This document shows positions 1 to 5,104 of a stretch of 5,104 nucleotides of DNA, in pieces. A model generated the notes under the pieces. That model had not been told where the DNA came from. It made no database searches and saw only the letters and a list, made by a program, of their open reading frames with translations. The position numbers were made by a program, and so were the translations under genes. The stretch comes from JBFMHD01 sp040752395 [NCBI: Candidatus Hydrogenedentota bacterium] (GTDB lineage: Bacteria; JBFMHD01), in contig JBFMHD010000202.1 of NCBI GenBank assembly GCA_040752395.1, positions 1 to 5,104 of the forward strand, in the 5' to 3' direction. Position 1 is the first letter of the stretch. Each line of letters starts with the position of its first letter.

Positions 1-32
1 TGGGTTCTTGGGTTATTGCGTTATTGCGTTCT
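1..32. repeat. Octamer tandem repeat, four units
   Basis: Four consecutive 8-bp units fill this stretch exactly: TGGGTTCT, TGGGTTAT, TGCGTTAT and TGCGTTCT, so the unit is TG(G/C)GTT(C/A)T. The array begins at the window edge and may extend further upstream. All frames through it are short and low-complexity, so I do not read it as the end of an upstream gene. It is the first block of a repeat mosaic that fills the 250 bp before hemC. Confidence 0.85.
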
Positions 33-93
33 AAATTCTGGCTGTTGACTACAGATTTCAGCATTTTGCATTCTGATTTTTTTAAACGATGTT
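33..93. other. Gene-free low-complexity linker within the repeat mosaic
   Basis: This stretch joins the octamer block to the heptamer blocks. It contains ATTCTG twice (35-40 and 70-75) and a run of seven or more T around 77-83. I see no open frame of useful length. A TTGACT at 45-50 resembles a -35 box, but no acceptable -10 lies 16-18 bp downstream, so I do not call a promoter here. Confidence 0.5.
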
Positions 94-121
94 GGCTTTC
101 GGCTCCGGGCTTCGGGCTCCA
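94..121. repeat. Heptamer tandem repeat GGCTYYN, four units
   Basis: Four exact 7-bp units follow one another: GGCTTTC, GGCTCCG, GGCTTCG and GGCTCCA. The block is much richer in G+C than the neighbouring genes. It is one of several blocks that share a 7-bp period but have different unit sequences, which is why the upstream region looks like a mosaic of related short arrays rather than one expanded microsatellite. Confidence 0.85.
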
Positions 122-127
122 GCCGGC

Positions 128-151
128 TGTAGTCCGTAGCCTGTAGCCTGT
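128..151. repeat. Heptamer tandem repeat TGTAGCC, about three units
   Basis: Three 7-bp units, TGTAGTC, CGTAGCC and TGTAGCC, are followed by a partial TGT. The period matches the neighbouring GGCTYYN block, but the unit sequence differs. No coding frame runs through it. Confidence 0.8.
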
Positions 152-169
152 CCTGATACCTCTCACTTC

Positions 170-247
170 TTCCGTTATCTTGCTTCTTGCCTCTTGCTTC
201 TTTCGTTATCTTTCTTTCCGTTATCTTGCTTCTTGCCTCTTGCTTCT
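170..247. repeat. 32-bp perfect direct repeat with internal CTTGCYT heptads
   Basis: Positions 170-201 and 216-247 are identical over 32 bp, offset by 46 bp. Inside each copy are three heptads, CTTGCTT, CTTGCCT and CTTGCTT (179-199 and 225-245). Between the copies lies a degenerate third partial copy with TTTCGTTATCT (201-211). The plus strand is strongly pyrimidine-rich, with G spaced at about 7 bp. The second copy ends only 3 bp before the hemC ATG, so the array occupies the place where a ribosome binding site would be expected. An open frame continues in phase from a TTG at 194 through the array into hemC, but the residues it encodes simply reflect the repeat. Confidence 0.92.
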
Positions 248-250
248 AAT

Positions 251-1147
251 ATGATAAATAAAAGAGTGATTAAAATCGGGACAAGAAAAAGTAGACTTGC
301 TGTAATACAAGCCCTGCTTGTTGCTGATGCGCTGAATAAAGGAGGTTATAATTGTGAATTAATAAAGATTACTACAAAAGGGGATAAATTTCTAAGAAAG
401 CCGCTACAAAAGGTTGGCGGTAAAGCCCTGTTTGTTAAAGAGATAGAACAAGCTCTTCTAAAAAAAGAGATCGATATTGCTGTACATAGTTTAAAAGACG
501 TCCCTTCAACGATACCAGAAGAACTCGCTCTCGTCTCTTTCTTGAAACGAGATGACCCACAGGATGCATTTATATCACCTCGATTTGATGATATTAAAAA
601 AATCTGTAAACCAATTACAATCGGTACCACCAGTCTGCGCAGACAAACCCAATTAAAAATTGTTAATGATAACTTCTCTTTTAAAATATTACGTGGTAAT
701 ATTGATACACGTTTAAAAAAACTCGATGATAAAGAGTTCGATGCCATAGTTATAGCTTATTGCGGTATAAAAAGACTGGGCATCAAACGAAACGATATAT
801 ATTCAATAAGTGTGGATGATGTAATTCCTGCCTGCGGACAGGGTGTTATAACAATTCAGAGTAGAAAAGATAACCCAATCAATGATGTGTTAGAAAAAAT
901 AAATGATTCTGAAACTGAGATTTGCGTGTGTTTAGAAAGAGAATTGCAGAAGTTTATAGGAATCAGCTGTTTTATCCCTTTCGGTGCCTATTTTGAAAAG
1001 AATAAAGATGAAATTATTGGTAGAATATTTCTTAAAATAGAAAATAAAAAAACGTATCTAAAAATCAAAAAACAAGATACCTGGGAAAATCGAAACAAAT
1101 TACTTGATAATATAAAGAAAGACATTAAAAGATATCTCGAGAGTTGA
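251..1147 (+). CDS. hemC: Hydroxymethylbilane synthase (porphobilinogen deaminase), HemC
   Basis: HemC condenses four porphobilinogen molecules into the linear tetrapyrrole hydroxymethylbilane in the cytoplasm, using a covalently bound dipyrromethane cofactor. From the ATG at 251 the product is 298 residues, close to the usual 300-310. Visible landmarks are the N-terminal IKIGTRKSRLAV strand and loop (7-18), KVGGKALFVKE (54-64), AVHSLKDVPS (77-86) with the catalytic Asp83, GTTSLRRQ (125-132) and LRGNIDTRL (147-155) with the substrate-binding arginines, and PACGQG (193-198). ISCFIPFGAY (238-247) contains Cys240, which should anchor the cofactor. An upstream TTG at 194 is in phase, but its extra 19 residues come from the repeat array, so I reject it. 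A GTG at 266 would give MIKIGTRKS, also a good HemC start; neither start has a clear Shine-Dalgarno site. The gene is followed after 3 bp by cobA-hemD, the next pathway step. hemA and hemB, frequent neighbours, are not in the window. Confidence 0.96.
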   Translation: MINKRVIKIGTRKSRLAVIQALLVADALNKGGYNCELIKITTKGDKFLRKPLQKVGGKALFVKEIEQALLKKEIDIAVHSLKDVPSTIPEELALVSFLKRDDPQDAFISPRFDDIKKICKPITIGTTSLRRQTQLKIVNDNFSFKILRGNIDTRLKKLDDKEFDAIVIAYCGIKRLGIKRNDIYSISVDDVIPACGQGVITIQSRKDNPINDVLEKINDSETEICVCLERELQKFIGISCFIPFGAYFEKNKDEIIGRIFLKIENKKTYLKIKKQDTWENRNKLLDNIKKDIKRYLES

Positions 1148-1150
1148 AAA

Positions 1151-2659
1151 ATGAAAGGTAAAGTTTATTTAATCGGTGCAGGACCCGGCGATAAAGGACT
1201 TATTACACAAAAAGCTGTAAAAATCTTAGAAAAAGCTGATGTAATTATTTATGACCGTCTTGTAAACCCGGACATTATTAAAGAGATACCTCAAAATATA
1301 GAAAAGATATATTCAGGTAAAAAAGGTTGGAAAAAACATACATCTCAAGAAAAGATAAATAAAATAATGGTAAATCTTGCAAAAAAAGGAAAAATCGTTG
1401 CAAGACTTAAAGGTGGAGACCCATTTGTCTTCGGTCGAGGTGCCGAAGAAACACTCTACCTAAAAAAATATAAAATACCGTTTGAGATAATACCAGGTAT
1501 AACAAGCGCTCTATCTTGCCCTGTATATGCAGGTATCCCCATCACACATCGCGGTATATCATCTTCTATTACTATAATCACAGGTAATGAAGACCCGAGT
1601 AAAAAAGAATCGTCAATAAACTGGAATGCTGTGGCACATACTCGTGGCACATTGATTATTTTGATGGGGATGATGAACCTGAATAAAATAACTGAGCGTT
1701 TGATAAAAGAGGGGATGGCGCAGGAGACACCGGTTTGTATTGTAATGGAAGGAACACATAATCATCAAAAAACATTGATAACTAATTTGAAAGATGCTTA
1801 TAGAGATTGCAAAAAACAGGGTTTTAAACAACCAGCTGTTATTGTTATCGGTTCTGTAGTTAATTTTAAAAAAGACCTTGAGTGGTTCGAAACAAGACCA
1901 CTACATCAAAAAAAAATCATTATTACCCGAGCTCTTCATCAATCAGAAGAGATAAAAGATAGCTTAACAGATTTAGGTGCAGTTGTTTATGAGATACCGA
2001 GTATAGAAATTATAGATTCGAATAAATCCCGAAAAAAGCTTTATAAGATTATAAAAAATTCTTCGAGTTATGATTTAATAATTTTTACAAGTGCTAATGG
2101 TATCGAAGTTTTTAAAAATCATTTAGATAGGATAGGATACGATTCTCGTTGGTTCGGCGATAAAAAGATTGCTGTAATCGGAGAAGCTACAAAAGATAAA
2201 CTTTTAAACGAGTTCAAAATAAAAGCAGATATAATACCAGAAGATTACATATCCGAATCGCTTGCAAAAGAGATTATTAAACATAAACACTCAGTAAGAA
2301 AAGCAATCTTATTTTGTGCTGAGAGAACAGGTGAGATACTGACCCGGTTATTAAAGAAGAAAGGTATCGATATTGAAATACTACCCTTATATAGAATTAG
2401 AAAACCAAAACAGACAAAAAAACTTTTTTACAGAATACGAAACGAAAAGATAGATTATATCATATTTACAAGTCCTTCTACGTTCATTAACTTTTTTAAT
2501 ATCAACGGCACCAGACAATTTCTTAAAAAATTAAAAATTATTTCAATAGGTCCAATAACATCAAAAACTATACGCAGATATGGTTACAAAGTATATCTCG
2601 AGTCTAAGAAGCACTCTATCTCAGGTATATTGCAGTTCCTATGCAGAGGGATCGTCTGA
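1151..2659 (+). CDS. cobA-hemD: Fused uroporphyrinogen III C-methyltransferase / uroporphyrinogen III synthase (CobA-HemD)
   Basis: This 502-residue protein joins two enzymes. Residues 1-245 are a SAM-dependent uroporphyrinogen III methyltransferase that makes precorrin-2 for siroheme or cobalamin. They show LIGAGPGD (7-14), GKKGWKKHTSQEKIN (56-70), RLKGGDPFVFGRGAEE (85-100), PVYAGIPITHRG (124-135), LIILMGMMNL (168-177) and PAVIVIGSVV (228-237). After a WFETRPL linker (245-251), typical of such fusions, residues 254-497 resemble HemD, which closes hydroxymethylbilane to uroporphyrinogen III. They show KIIITRALHQ (255-264), DLIIFTSANGIEVF (308-321), KIAVIGEAT (339-347), DYIIFTSPSTF (435-445) and KIISIGPITSKTIRRYGY (462-479). 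The start lies 3 bp after the hemC stop, with a weak GAGAG seven bases upstream, suggesting translational coupling. HemC product is the HemD substrate, and HemD product is the CobA substrate. The last residues (CRGIV) run into DNA that belongs to the decayed nucleotidyltransferase on the other strand, so the native C-terminus may have been altered slightly. Confidence 0.95.
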   Translation: MKGKVYLIGAGPGDKGLITQKAVKILEKADVIIYDRLVNPDIIKEIPQNIEKIYSGKKGWKKHTSQEKINKIMVNLAKKGKIVARLKGGDPFVFGRGAEETLYLKKYKIPFEIIPGITSALSCPVYAGIPITHRGISSSITIITGNEDPSKKESSINWNAVAHTRGTLIILMGMMNLNKITERLIKEGMAQETPVCIVMEGTHNHQKTLITNLKDAYRDCKKQGFKQPAVIVIGSVVNFKKDLEWFETRPLHQKKIIITRALHQSEEIKDSLTDLGAVVYEIPSIEIIDSNKSRKKLYKIIKNSSSYDLIIFTSANGIEVFKNHLDRIGYDSRWFGDKKIAVIGEATKDKLLNEFKIKADIIPEDYISESLAKEIIKHKHSVRKAILFCAERTGEILTRLLKKKGIDIEILPLYRIRKPKQTKKLFYRIRNEKIDYIIFTSPSTFINFFNINGTRQFLKKLKIISIGPITSKTIRRYGYKVYLESKKHSISGILQFLCRGIV

Positions 2660-2883
2660 TAGCTTCTCACTTATACTTTCTCCAAAAAATTCTTTTATTG
2701 CTGATGCAATATTTTTTGAGTTGCCCTTTTTCGTGATATATAAAAATCAATATCGTAAGTAAACCTCGGCTCTGCATGAAACGATACACCATAAGCTCCA
2801 GTAATACAGTACTCAACCTTATGTTTATTCAGTATTCTAATAAAGTCTTCAAAATCAGGATTAGTAAGAAATTTTTTACTCAT
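2639..2883 (-). pseudogene. Decayed minimal nucleotidyltransferase (MNT-type, unknown function), frameshifted and truncated
   Basis: The intact first frame (2883 down to 2695) encodes 62 residues. They include DFEDFIRILNKHKVEYCITG and GVSFHAEPRFTYDIDFYI, the N-terminal half of a small DNA-polymerase-beta-like nucleotidyltransferase with the DxD metal-binding pair (Asp45 and Asp47 in TYDID). The frame then degenerates into RATQKILHQQ and stops. Restoring one A to the five-base run at 2727-2731 moves reading to the frame that gives KKGNSKNIASAIKEFFGE and more, a natural continuation of the family, until a stop at 2639-2641. Even so, the product is only about 81 residues and lacks the C-terminal part, where relatives carry a third acidic residue. 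The family includes uncharacterised proteins and antitoxin-like members; no partner gene is present here. A -1 ribosomal frameshift on the A run is possible in principle, but the missing C-terminus makes a pseudogene more likely. The tail overlaps the last 21 bp of cobA-hemD in opposite orientation. Confidence 0.75.
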
Positions 2884-2988: not shown

Positions 2989-3873
2989 ATGAAATATATA
3001 AAAATCGATAAAGATTTTGATGATACTCGAATAGATAAATATCTACGAAAATTATTTCCCAACACCTCTTTGTCCATAATATATAAATTCATTAGAAAAG
3101 GATTGATTAAGGTTAATAATAAAAGAGTAGGACATTCATACAGATTGGCTTTAAATGACATTGTTTCCTGGCCTGATTGGCTTTATAGTTTCTCAGAGAT
3201 TAACAAGGAGAAGCTGTTTCGACAACGACTGGTTAAAAATAGTGATTACAAGCGGGATTTTCATTTCAAGGTATTATATGAGGATGAGAACCTTTGTATA
3301 ATAAGTAAGCCTAAAAATATAACTGTTCATCAGGGTAATGATAAAAACAAGCCATCTATATCCTCGCTTCTTAAAATACCTGGTTGTTTGTATTCGCCGT
3401 CGCCGGTTCATAGGCTTGATTATGATACAACAGGTTGCTTGCTAATAGCCCGGGATAGAAATACAGCAAAGATATTAAGTTTATATTTCAAAGAAAATAA
3501 AATAGATAAATATTATCTTGCAAAAGTAAGAGGTAGAATAACAGAAGAGAAAGAAATAGCTTATTCTCTTTCAAATAAATGTGCTATTACCCGGATCAAA
3601 CCTTTTTATACAAAAGATGATTATTCTGTACTATTTATCAAACTAATTACAGGTAGAAAGCATCAGATAAAATATCATCTAAATAAGATAGGCCATCCTG
3701 TTTTAGAACTGCATTGTTTTTCACTTGGTTTTATACATCCTGAAACAAAAAAATATTTGTATATGGTCGATAAAAATATTGACTGGTTAGATAAAAAATT
3801 GGTTAACGCTATGGTTGTAGCTGAGAAAAAAATGAGAAGAAAGAGGGATGTTTTATGCGAGTCTGTGTCTTAG
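2989..3873 (+). CDS. RluA-family (RluC/RluD-like) 23S rRNA pseudouridine synthase
   Basis: The enzyme should isomerise uridine to pseudouridine in RNA, most likely 23S rRNA. Residues 12-60 form an S4 RNA-binding domain (RIDKYLRKLFPNTSLSIIYK at 14-33, then IRKGLIKVNNKRV). The catalytic domain begins near 92, with VLYEDENLCIISKPKNITVH (95-114). HRLDYDTTGCLLIAR (141-155) carries the catalytic Asp144, KYYLAKVRG (174-182) follows, and TGRKHQIKYHLNKIGHPV (221-238) is the characteristic late motif. S4 plus this fold points to the RluC/RluD branch rather than RluA, but the exact rRNA target cannot be read from sequence. At 294 residues it is a little short, because the usual GDxxYG loop after GHP is absent: GHPVLE leads straight into LHCFSLGFIHPET. 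The ATG at 2989 fits the S4 start and sits just after a promoter, without a ribosome binding site. The 3' end overlaps panE by 19 bp. Confidence 0.92.
   Translation: MKYIKIDKDFDDTRIDKYLRKLFPNTSLSIIYKFIRKGLIKVNNKRVGHSYRLALNDIVSWPDWLYSFSEINKEKLFRQRLVKNSDYKRDFHFKVLYEDENLCIISKPKNITVHQGNDKNKPSISSLLKIPGCLYSPSPVHRLDYDTTGCLLIARDRNTAKILSLYFKENKIDKYYLAKVRGRITEEKEIAYSLSNKCAITRIKPFYTKDDYSVLFIKLITGRKHQIKYHLNKIGHPVLELHCFSLGFIHPETKKYLYMVDKNIDWLDKKLVNAMVVAEKKMRRKRDVLCESVS
3843..3847 (+). promoter_or_regulatory. Shine-Dalgarno site for panE inside the pseudouridine synthase gene
   Basis: GAGGG lies seven bases before the ATG at 3855, within the last codons of the upstream gene. It supports 3855 as the panE start and suggests coupled translation. 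It is the clearest ribosome binding site in the window; hemC and the two genes flanking 2884-2988 have none. Confidence 0.7.
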
Positions 3874-4766
3874 GCATAGGAGCTGTTGGCGGTTATTATG
3901 GGGGAAGACTTGCTTATCATTCAGCATGGGATGTAATATTTATTGCTCGCGGTCCAGCGTTTTCCTATCTAAAGAACAATCCTTTAGAGGTTAAAAGTGT
4001 TAATGGTAATTTCAGTGTAAAAGTTCCTGTATTTGAAGAAGTACCTCCTGATTTTCACCCTGACATTATAATAATCTGTACAAAATCATATGATACTTTA
4101 CAAGCAATAGAAACTCTTAAGAATTCTGATACTCCTTGTACTCGGATTCTGTGTATCCAGAATGGTATTGAGAACGAAAAAAAACTTGAGGATTATAAAT
4201 TTAAAGGTTGGGTGTTAGGAGGGGTTGCATTTATAGCTTCGCAGGCTGTAGAGCCTGGTAAAATTGTTCATCAATCTGTTGGCGGCCTTGGGATCGGTGC
4301 TATGGATGAGCATAATAAAGATTTTGCAAAATTATTAGTTGATGAGTTTAATAGATGTAAAGTTGAGACAAGATATCTTGAGAATGTGTTATTTCATAAA
4401 TGGAAAAAACTTATGTGGAATGCTGCGTTTAATTCTCTAACAACAATTACAGGTAAAACCGTTATACAGCTGCTTAATAATAAAAAAACATTAGATATAA
4501 TCAGGTCAACAATGGAAGAGGTAAAAATAGTTGCAAATAAAGAAGGGTATGATTTATGTGATAAAGATATAGAAGATATGATAAGCGCTTCTTATGATGT
4601 TGGAGATTATAAGACATCAATGTTACTTGACTTGGAACGTAAAAAACCAACTGAAAATGATGATATTTCAGGAGCTGTTGTAAGGTATGGTAAAAAACAT
4701 AATATATCTACACCTTTTAATCTTGCGTTTTATTCTATTATCTCTTTATTAGAGCAGTCTGCCTGA
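3855..4766 (+). CDS. panE: 2-dehydropantoate 2-reductase (ketopantoate reductase), PanE/ApbA family
   Basis: The family uses NADPH to reduce ketopantoate to pantoate, the committed pantothenate and coenzyme A precursor. The 303-residue product matches the usual length. An N-terminal Rossmann fold shows VLGIGAVGGYYGGRLA (5-20) with the GxGxxGxxxG dinucleotide loop, then IIIICTKSYDT (71-81), the CIQNG loop (100-104) and GGVAFIASQAVEPGKIVH (122-139). In the C-terminal helical domain, HKWKKLMWNAAFNSLTTITG (181-200) contains the likely catalytic Lys185 and substrate-binding Asn189 and Asn193. TSMLLDLERKKPTEND (254-269) supplies Ser255 and Glu267, the equivalents of active-site Ser and Glu in the E. 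coli enzyme. The gene begins inside the pseudouridine synthase gene (19-bp overlap), with GAGGG upstream. No panB, panC or ilvC is nearby, so the substrate rests on homology; some family members act on other 2-oxo acids. No obvious terminator hairpin with a T tract follows the TGA. Confidence 0.93.
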   Translation: MRVCVLGIGAVGGYYGGRLAYHSAWDVIFIARGPAFSYLKNNPLEVKSVNGNFSVKVPVFEEVPPDFHPDIIIICTKSYDTLQAIETLKNSDTPCTRILCIQNGIENEKKLEDYKFKGWVLGGVAFIASQAVEPGKIVHQSVGGLGIGAMDEHNKDFAKLLVDEFNRCKVETRYLENVLFHKWKKLMWNAAFNSLTTITGKTVIQLLNNKKTLDIIRSTMEEVKIVANKEGYDLCDKDIEDMISASYDVGDYKTSMLLDLERKKPTENDDISGAVVRYGKKHNISTPFNLAFYSIISLLEQSA

Positions 4767-4982: not shown

Positions 4983-4999
4983 TGAGGCACTGCCTCATC
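4983..4999. repeat. 17-bp palindromic repeat, copy 1
   Basis: The sequence TGAGGCACTGCCTCATC contains a perfect 15-bp palindrome, TGAGGCA-C-TGCCTCA (4983-4997). An identical copy starts 105 bp downstream at 5088. The single-base centre is too tight for a full hairpin, though a 5-bp stem with a 5-base loop could form. No T tract follows, so it is a poor terminator. It could be a binding site, a mobile-element end or part of a longer repeat; I cannot tell which. Confidence 0.85.
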
Positions 5000-5087: not shown

Positions 5088-5104
5088 TGAGGCACTGCCT
5101 CATC
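5088..5104. repeat. 17-bp palindromic repeat, copy 2, at window edge
   Basis: This is identical to the copy at 4983-4999 over all 17 bp, and includes the same 15-bp palindrome (5088-5102). The window ends at its last base, so the match could extend further. The 88 bp between copies are visibly richer in G and C than the stretch just upstream. Confidence 0.85.

What the first reader, a model, noticed from the sequence alone, without database searches (positions are those of the whole stretch)
1..250. Upstream region is a mosaic of different 7-8 bp tandem repeats
Four adjacent blocks have different unit sequences but nearly the same period: an octamer TGSGTTMT four times (1-32), GGCTYYN four times (94-121), TGTAGCC about three times (128-151) and CTTGCYT heptads (179-199, 225-245). 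Sharing a period without sharing a sequence suggests a common generating process rather than slippage of one microsatellite. Heptameric short tandem repeats are known from heterocystous cyanobacteria (STRR sequences); whether this is the same kind of thing is inference.
Basis: partly seen in the sequence, partly recalled or inferred. Interest (0 to 1): 0.6.

Follow-up and report, generated by a model that had tools for sequence, protein, structure and literature searches.

The report
Seven-base repeat mosaic before hemC
The 250 bases in front of a haem-synthesis gene are built largely in seven-base steps and include a hairpin; in some other bacteria such seven-base patches stay at the same spot while their sequence is replaced by a different seven-base unit, which points to a poorly understood process that writes DNA in steps of seven.

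Summary
The blocks are real. Bases 1-250 have one dominant period, 7 (lag-7 z 7.9), with an octamer block at 1-32. Blocks 2 and 3 are not independent: 94-151 is one 7-periodic run folding into an imperfect hairpin (101-122/127-148). The CTTGCYT array ends 3 bases before the hemC start codon.

The window's own genome is not held, so its genome-wide status is untested. In other bacteria the same kind of DNA is abundant: in two members of one family (G181, G307) 118 and 113 period-7 arrays per 608 kb, against at most 9 for any other period from 5 to 17 except 14. Arrays sit in palindromes, between co-directional genes, in protein loops and in export signals. Between G181 and G307 the register stays while the unit changes (22 of 29 spanned sites; controls 0 of 77), mostly on both hairpin arms. 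One intergenic site has five unlike heptad segments and one empty site in six species.

Heptamer excess and paired heptamers are in print; replacement of the unit on both arms I did not find described.

The parts
1..32 (.). octamer array TGSGTTMT, four copies (period 8)
   Evidence: lag 8 match 0.88, 0 of 1000 shuffles; 4-30 period 8; lag-8 segment 1-30
33..93 (.). degenerate 7-periodic stretch (strongest 47-75)
   Evidence: lag 7 0.44, 11 of 1000 shuffles; lag-7 segment 47-75
94..151 (.). continuous 7-periodic run: GGCTYYN heptads then TGTAGCC heptads
   Evidence: lag-7 segment 94-151, score 19
101..122 (+). left arm of imperfect heptad hairpin
   Evidence: palindrome 101-122/127-148, 0 of 200 Markov sequences as good; fold; I1
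127..148 (+). right arm of imperfect heptad hairpin (loop 123-126)
152..178 (.). transitional heptads between the hairpin and the CTTGCYT arrays
   Evidence: lag 7 0.55, 15 of 1000 shuffles
170..201 (+). first copy of 32-base repeat holding CTTGCTT-CTTGCCT-CTTGCTT (179-199)
   Evidence: D1; 179-199 lag 7, 2 of 1000 shuffles
216..247 (+). second, identical copy of the 32-base repeat (heptads 225-245), ending 3 bases before the hemC ATG
   Evidence: D1 100%; 225-245 lag 7, 1 of 1000 shuffles
251..1147 (+). hemC, hydroxymethylbilane synthase, directly downstream (start at ATG 251 is my choice)
   Evidence: PF01379 3e-72; TIGR00212 1e-89
1151..2659 (+). cobA-hemD fusion (uroporphyrinogen-III methyltransferase/synthase), next gene
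   Evidence: PF00590 and PF02602; TIGR01469

Best explanation
The stretch 1-250 is an accumulation of heptad segments in the leader of hemC (probably an intercistronic gap; no upstream gene is in the window). It belongs to a class of DNA, common in some bacterial lineages, in which short non-coding gaps and tolerant spots in genes are repeatedly rewritten in a fixed 7-base register. Proposed steps: (1) slipped-strand or template-switch copying with a preferred step of 7 bases (8 now and then) multiplies and homogenises whatever unit is present (inferred; the 7-base preference is shown by counts); (2) the fold-back hairpin lets one arm template the other, so both arms carry the same unit (architecture shown, process inferred); (3) the unit at a site is replaced by another from the genome's own limited set, so the site and register outlive the sequence (shown between relatives, mechanism unknown); (4) arrays persist where they do little harm: co-directional gene gaps, protein loops, N-terminal export signals (places shown, harmlessness inferred). 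In the window the segment is most likely neutral leader DNA and not a conserved signal (inferred). Steps 2-4 are shown only in other genomes.
For: Window: period 7 at z 7.9 across unlike units; heptad hairpin with phased mismatches. Elsewhere: of 297 genomes drawn from the phylum of G001, CTTGCYT x3 is in 5 and its reversal in 0; 15 places in G181. G181 607,841 b and its family member G307 608,069 b: period 7, 118 and 113 arrays; other periods from 5 to 17 at most 9, except 14 with 77 and 60. 35 of 52 arrays in the first G181 sample lie in palindromes above the 95th percentile of 141 control places. In 36 genomes not chosen by pattern (482 kb) period 7 has 8 arrays in 5 genomes, other periods from 5 to 13 have 0-3 (one of the five, G019, is in G093's family). 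Orthologous sites: of 29 G181 elements spanned by one alignment 22 have a lag-7 array in G307 (controls 0 of 77), element identity 0.68 against flank 0.79; of 15 hairpins 12 are hairpins in G307 too, and of these 12 the arms match within species better than across in 11. Site A: five unlike heptad segments and one empty site in six species; site B inside CbiD: heptads in all eight species, units differing (heptads read by eye from the alignments). Three members of another family carry inverted heptad arrays just after hemC, of at least two unlike unit types. Unit reuse within a genome: top 20 units 131 places in G181 and 102 in G307, their reversals 0 in both.
Against: None of the comparative evidence comes from the window's own genome or kin. 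The window's unit TGTAGCC was found in 0 of 148 genomes of that phylum and in 3 IMG/VR stretches against 0 for its reversal. Apart from CTTGCYT, by which G181 was chosen, sharing of units between window and G181 is weak (33-178: 6 of 500 shuffles reach it at k = 7 and at k = 8, 40 of 500 at k = 9). Folding of the whole 1-250 is ordinary (z -0.12). Of the 29 spanned sites 7 had no lag-7 array in G307. Of sites anchored by two separate alignments, 4 of 9 (G181 to G307) and 8 of 14 (G307 to G181) had no heptad in the other genome. Only 39 of 167 G181 and 41 of 99 G307 elements could be anchored at all. 80 loci of mostly Bacillota and Aquificaceae, 0.98 Mb, hold only 2 period-7 arrays, so the process is far from universal. 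Strong unit reuse fits dispersal better than plain slippage.
Confidence: 0.55

Rival explanations
1. Mobile palindromic cassettes: about 65-base heptad hairpins are copied around the genome like MITEs, REPINs or Rickettsia palindromic elements, and the window holds one or more of them.
For: In G181 the second element inside CbiD (query about 534-597) matches dozens of other listed places, mostly at 80-95% (palindromes can match on both strands), likewise the element of site A; an empty site exists in G098, and 8 of 14 two-anchor sites of G307 have no heptad in G181; a few units make up many arrays; the strand of a unit on the left arm is nearly constant, 440 of 465 counts. In G305 one Y1 transposase match lies about 190 bases from a heptad element (C20:8545-8745, C20:8933-8995).
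Against: The families share the 7-base register although sequences differ; replacement occurs at the very same place with similar length (19 of 29 within 7 bases). At site A no target duplication is evident by eye against the empty site (not searched systematically). Y1 transposase genes occur in 8 of 8 genomes of the family, and of six such places in the sampled G181 DNA none lay within 900 bases of an array.
Confidence: 0.22
2. Independent microsatellite slippage and chance: each block is a separate short repeat, and the shared period is the known general excess of heptamers.
For: Heptameric excess in many bacteria is in print, with the idea that 7 bases is the stretch held by the polymerase (Mrazek 2007, as cited in PMC4692102 and PMC4679880).
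Against: Unlike units adjoin in one register in the window; hairpin arms change together; units are reused at many loci while the reversals of the top 20 are absent.
Confidence: 0.12
3. Regulatory sites: repeats bind a protein or RNA-binding factor in the hemC leader (IHF/HU or post-transcriptional regulator).
For: The array ends 3 bases before the ATG with no AGGAGG in 1-262, as described for TAACTGA repeats in BOGUAY (PMC4679880, section 13); paired heptamers of Geobacter metallireducens were labelled possible IHF/HU sites (PMC2700814).
Against: In G181/G307 the unit is often not conserved at orthologous sites; 81 of 167 G181 and 63 of 99 G307 elements lie inside ORFs; divergent, promoter-bearing gaps are avoided in G181 (1 of 86 intergenic elements against 0.11 of random intergenic points; G307 3 of 36 against 0.14).
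Confidence: 0.06
4. Transcription terminator or attenuator hairpin ahead of hemC.
For: Stable hairpin at 101-148.
Against: No T run follows it; the three terminator-like sites of the scan lie elsewhere; Rfam finds nothing in the window.
Confidence: 0.03
5. Assembly artefact at a contig end.
For: The window begins inside the octamer array and ends in a second copy of a 17-base repeat, as short-read contigs often do.
Against: Period-7 arrays also occur in genomes not chosen by pattern, on contigs of 3.4-4.5 Mb (G029, G039, G169).
Confidence: 0.02

Closest known systems
Long simple sequence repeats with 7-base units (Mrazek 2007, not read; as cited in PMC4692102 and PMC4679880)
   Same: excess of heptamer arrays in some bacterial genomes, patchy between lineages
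   Different: here unlike units share one register at a site, form hairpins, and the unit at a site is replaced between relatives
Paired hepta- and octanucleotide repeat elements of Geobacter metallireducens (classes 1 and 3, and the GGGACCG element; PMC2700814, passages and legends)
   Same: tandem 7- and 8-base units, inverted pairs (classes 1 and 3), elements between and within genes
   Different: catalogued there as separate families and read as possible IHF/HU sites or RNA elements; the window's units differ (one MTYCTGA match at 70, no GTTGCTYN, no GGACCGG)
TAACTGA heptamer repeats of Beggiatoaceae, Cyanobacteria and Bacteroidetes (PMC4679880)
   Same: heptamers directly ahead of start codons, few Shine-Dalgarno sequences; TAACTGA itself is one of the G181/G307 units (3 places)
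   Different: single favoured unit there; not present in the window's 1-262
GGGAATC / GGGGAYT repeats of Xanthomonas and Nostoc (PMC4692102); STRRs of heterocystous cyanobacteria
   Same: heptamers near genes; for the first, divergent gaps under-represented and sequence variation at shared sites
   Different: G-rich G4-forming unit; absent from 1-262
Rickettsia palindromic elements (as described in passages of PMC10969869)
   Same: palindromic repeats tolerated in frame inside genes
   Different: about 150 bases, sequence families; here a 7-base register with changing units

Membership tests
STRR of heterocystous cyanobacteria | tandem heptamers | tested here: met
STRR of heterocystous cyanobacteria | the family's unit (CCCCAGT, CCCCATT, CCCCAAT recalled; GGGGAYT from PMC4692102) | tested here: not met
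   none on either strand of 1-262
STRR of heterocystous cyanobacteria | same unit at many places in the genome | not testable with these tools
   no genome held
STRR of heterocystous cyanobacteria | cyanobacterial host | tested here: inconclusive
Long heptamer SSR (LSSR) | 7-base tandem repetition beyond chance | tested here: met
Paired heptamer elements of G. metallireducens | inverted pair of tandem 7- or 8-mers | tested here: met
   101-122 with 127-148
Paired heptamer elements of G. metallireducens | published unit consensus (MTYCTGA, GTTGCTYN, GGACCGG) in tandem | tested here: not met
   one MTYCTGA at 70, others none
Paired heptamer elements of G. metallireducens | multicopy in its genome | not testable with these tools
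   no genome held
TAACTGA repeats | unit TAACTGA | tested here: not met
TAACTGA repeats | array within a few bases of a start codon, without Shine-Dalgarno | tested here: met
   array ends at 247, ATG at 251; no AGGAGG in 1-262
REPIN / RAYT elements | cognate Y1 transposase gene close by | tested here: inconclusive
   none among the five window proteins scanned; in sampled G181 DNA none of six Y1_Tnp places lies within 900 b of an array; in G305 one lies about 190 b from a heptad element
Intrinsic terminator | hairpin followed by T run | tested here: not met
   no site at 101-148
Known structured RNA | match to an Rfam family | tested here: not met
   0 matches at gathering threshold

The most novel reading that the evidence does not exclude
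A dedicated writing process lays down a template-given heptad on both 3' ends of a break or stalled fork, as telomere synthesis does, and the ends are then joined. That would give, at one stroke, the 7-base register, two arms with the same unit, a fixed strand of the unit on the left arm, a limited set of units per genome, and replacement of the whole unit at the same fragile site. The strand rule is observed: in G181 and G307 the left arm of heptad palindromes has G over C in 94 against 18 (of 116) and 58 against 4 (of 65) cases, other palindromes 125:114 (of 249) and 74:53 (of 135) (cases are not independent, since related units recur; a dispersed palindromic family would also keep its strand). 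The window's hairpin was not tested for this rule. A reverse transcriptase of the RVT_1 family is unlikely to be the writer: 8 of 11 heptad-bearing genomes searched show none, among them G307 and G093 (draft genomes).
Probability: 0.08. Interest if true: 0.92.

Novelty: new variant of a known kind. Interest (0 to 1): 0.66.

Why it matters
Excess of heptamer repeats in bacteria has been noted since 2007; the papers I saw offer only a hypothesis for the cause. Sites that keep a 7-base register while the unit, and both hairpin arms, are swapped turn that into a testable question: related genomes can be lined up to see how the swap happens. The arrays also reach into proteins: cobalamin enzymes of G181 (CbiD, a CobQ-like enzyme and a tetrapyrrole methylase) and export signals: in G181, 23 of 31 ORFs with an array in the first 60 codons pass a crude hydropathy rule for exported proteins against 220 of 821 others. 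A 7-base repeat without stops gives the same cyclic heptapeptide in all three frames, so it could supply export signals whatever the frame.

Tried and rejected
Universal unit vocabulary across phyla: not established. Tandem units fell in the G181/G307 unit list against the reversed list 3 to 0 (IMG/VR loci found by CTTGCYT), 7 to 12 (found by ATTTACG), 0 to 0 (found by CTGTAGC), 1 to 1 and 2 to 0 (two control sets), 6 to 7 (L001-L080), 0 to 1 (five loci of G175, G225, G057, G093). The window's TGTAGCC unit is in 0 of 148 genomes. Direct IMG/VR counts of stretches, unit x3 against reversal: CTTGCYT 20 against 12, CTGTAGC 3 against 0, ATTTACG 33 against 5.

RAYT/Y1 transposase as mover: present in 8 of 8 genomes of the family; not near arrays in the G181 sample, one close case in G305; left open. 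RVT_1 as writer: in 3 of 11 genomes. Terminator, Rfam RNA: nothing at the hairpin. Plasmid collection: three records (7 places) with 30-base matches to the octamer block, E 0.8. Finding the window's kin by HemC: none close; the window's phylum stays unknown. Whole-region folding is not unusual.

Papers: PMC4692102 passages and Discussion; PMC4679880 abstract, introduction and sections 8, 13, 15, 24; PMC2700814 passages and the supplementary legends; PMC10969869 and PMC12699852 passages. Mrazek 2007 was not read. The statement that replacement of the unit on both arms at a kept site was not found described rests on searches (open-access library only, top rows seen); PMC4692102 does report length and sequence variation at shared sites.

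Full report
WHAT IS THERE. The window is a 5104-base stretch with hemC (251-1147), a cobA-hemD fusion (1151-2659), a small unassigned ORF on the minus strand (2695-2883), an RluA-type pseudouridine synthase (2989-3873) and a ketopantoate reductase (3855-4766). Its self-match at lag 7 is 0.523 against 0.303 in 1000 dinucleotide shuffles (z 7.9), with harmonics at 14 and 21 and no other lag from 2 to 30 above z 2.3. The first 32 bases have period 8. Bases 94-151 form one 7-periodic run whose halves are imperfect reverse complements with a mismatch about every seventh base: a hairpin 101-122/127-148. The CTTGCYT heptads sit in a 32-base segment present twice, 170-201 and 216-247. The second copy ends three bases before the hemC ATG; no AGGAGG is in 1-262.

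LIMITS. No genome is held for the window. I ran them on other genomes that carry the same kind of DNA. They were found by one window pattern, CTTGCYT three times, present in 5 of 297 genomes of one phylum draw while the reversed pattern was in none.

GENOME-WIDE SIGNAL. In 607,841 bases of G181 there are 118 period-7 arrays and in 608,069 bases of its family member G307 113; other periods from 5 to 17 have 0 to 9, except the harmonic 14 with 77 and 60. One first-order Markov sequence of the first G181 sample gave none. To avoid selection by pattern I took up to 20 kb from each of 36 other genomes of that draw: 8 period-7 arrays in 5 genomes, 0 to 3 for the other periods from 5 to 13; one of the five, G019, proved to belong to G093's family. 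In 0.98 Mb of the HemC loci, mostly Bacillota and Aquificaceae, there were 2. So the feature is strong in some lineages and nearly absent in others. G093, of another family, has 11 arrays in 20 kb, with unlike heptads side by side as in the window.

ARCHITECTURE AND PLACE. 35 of 52 arrays in the first G181 sample lie in imperfect palindromes beyond the 95th percentile of 141 control places. Of 86 intergenic elements in G181, 77 lie between co-directional genes and one between divergent genes; 0.56 and 0.11 of random intergenic points do. In G307 it is 32 and 3 of 36, against 0.53 and 0.14 (simple ORF calls). A further 81 elements in G181 and 63 in G307 lie inside ORFs, most often in the first tenth (20 and 24). 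There they can make charged then hydrophobic stretches: in G181 23 of 31 ORFs with an array in the first 60 codons pass a crude export-signal rule against 220 of 821 others, in G307 21 of 30 against 161 of 491.

TURNOVER. G181 and G307 share about 79% identity over aligned DNA. Of 167 G181 elements in the sample, 29 are spanned by one alignment with 100 bases to spare. In 22 of these the G307 site also holds a lag-7 array, against 0 of 77 control places, yet median identity in the element is 0.68 against 0.79 in the flanks (lower in 21 of 28). Lengths differ by at most 7 bases in 19 of 29. Where the G181 element is a hairpin (15), 12 of the G307 sites are hairpins too, and of these the arms fit each other within a species better than across species in 11. 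Against this, of sites anchored by two separate alignments 4 of 9 (G181 to G307) and 8 of 14 (G307 to G181) show no heptad in the other genome, so gain and loss are also frequent. At site A, an intergenic gap with flanks 83-94% identical to G181, five species carry unlike heptad segments and G098 has an empty site; G308 aligned only on the left and G309 had no flank match, so the count is six of eight family genomes (heptads read by eye). At site B, inside CbiD (Pfam PF01888), all eight species keep 7-periodic segments at the same places, mostly with changed units (by eye). In G093's family (three genomes) inverted heptad arrays follow hemC in all three; G093 and G057 share one arm type, G019 has another.

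UNITS. Each genome reuses a limited set: the top 20 units of G181 account for 131 places and those of G307 for 102, their reversals for none; shuffling letters within units gives about 238 different units in G181 where 136 are seen. In palindromes a unit nearly always has the same strand on the left arm (440 of 465 counts over units seen at least three times, both arms counted) and the left arm has more G than C in 94 against 18 (G181) and 58 against 4 (G307), while other palindromes are 125:114 and 74:53. These counts are not independent, because related units recur. TAACTGA, the repeat described in Beggiatoaceae, is one of the G181/G307 units (3 places). Whether units are shared across phyla remains open.

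READING. The shared period in the window is best seen as one instance of a 7-base writing and rewriting process acting on tolerant sites. Slippage with a 7-base step has been proposed in print for heptamer excess (cited in PMC4692102, PMC4679880). It does not by itself explain two-armed hairpins, reuse of units or whole-unit replacement. Dispersal of palindromic cassettes explains reuse and empty sites but not the common register or replacement in place. A writer acting on both ends of a break would explain all of these but has no candidate enzyme: RVT_1 proteins were not found in 8 of 11 such genomes (drafts). For the window I judge the segment neutral leader DNA, which is inference; the hairpin has no terminator features.

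PRIOR ART. Heptamer excess, heptamers ahead of start codons, and inverted pairs of tandem 7- and 8-mers, as well as heptamer elements within genes, have been described (PMC4692102, PMC4679880, PMC2700814). The unification by register, and replacement of the unit on both arms at a kept site, I did not find in the searches made.

Noticed in passing
window 4983-4999 and 5088-5104: An identical 17-base palindromic repeat TGAGGCACTGCCTCATC occurs twice, the second copy ending at the last base; with the octamer array at base 1 both window ends lie in repeats, as at short-read contig ends.
   Followed up: no
window 194-250: The heptad array is open in frame with hemC; read through it would add a hydrophobic N-terminus to what should be a cytoplasmic enzyme, so the start is more likely ATG 251.
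   Followed up: partly
L121 983-2546, L119 384-1454, L127 3915-4467: In G181, heptad arrays at gene starts seem to encode export signals: the purine-rich arm a charged stretch, the CTTGCYT arm a hydrophobic stretch, at times with a LASC lipobox (read by eye and by a crude rule).
   Followed up: partly
L205 8369-9622, 14578-15450, 15440-17008: Cobalamin genes of G181 (CbiD, a tetrapyrrole methylase, a CobQ-like enzyme) carry in-frame heptad segments.
   Followed up: yes
L313 (G093 C1 1-20000): Eleven period-7 arrays in 20 kb, with mosaics of unlike heptads that resemble the window.
   Followed up: partly
G305 C20:8545-8745 and C20:8933-8995: A Y1 transposase match lies about 190 bases from a heptad element, the one close case seen.
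   Followed up: no
window 2695-2883: Short minus-strand ORF that looks like a nucleotidyltransferase fragment by eye; no Pfam or NCBIfam match.
   Followed up: no
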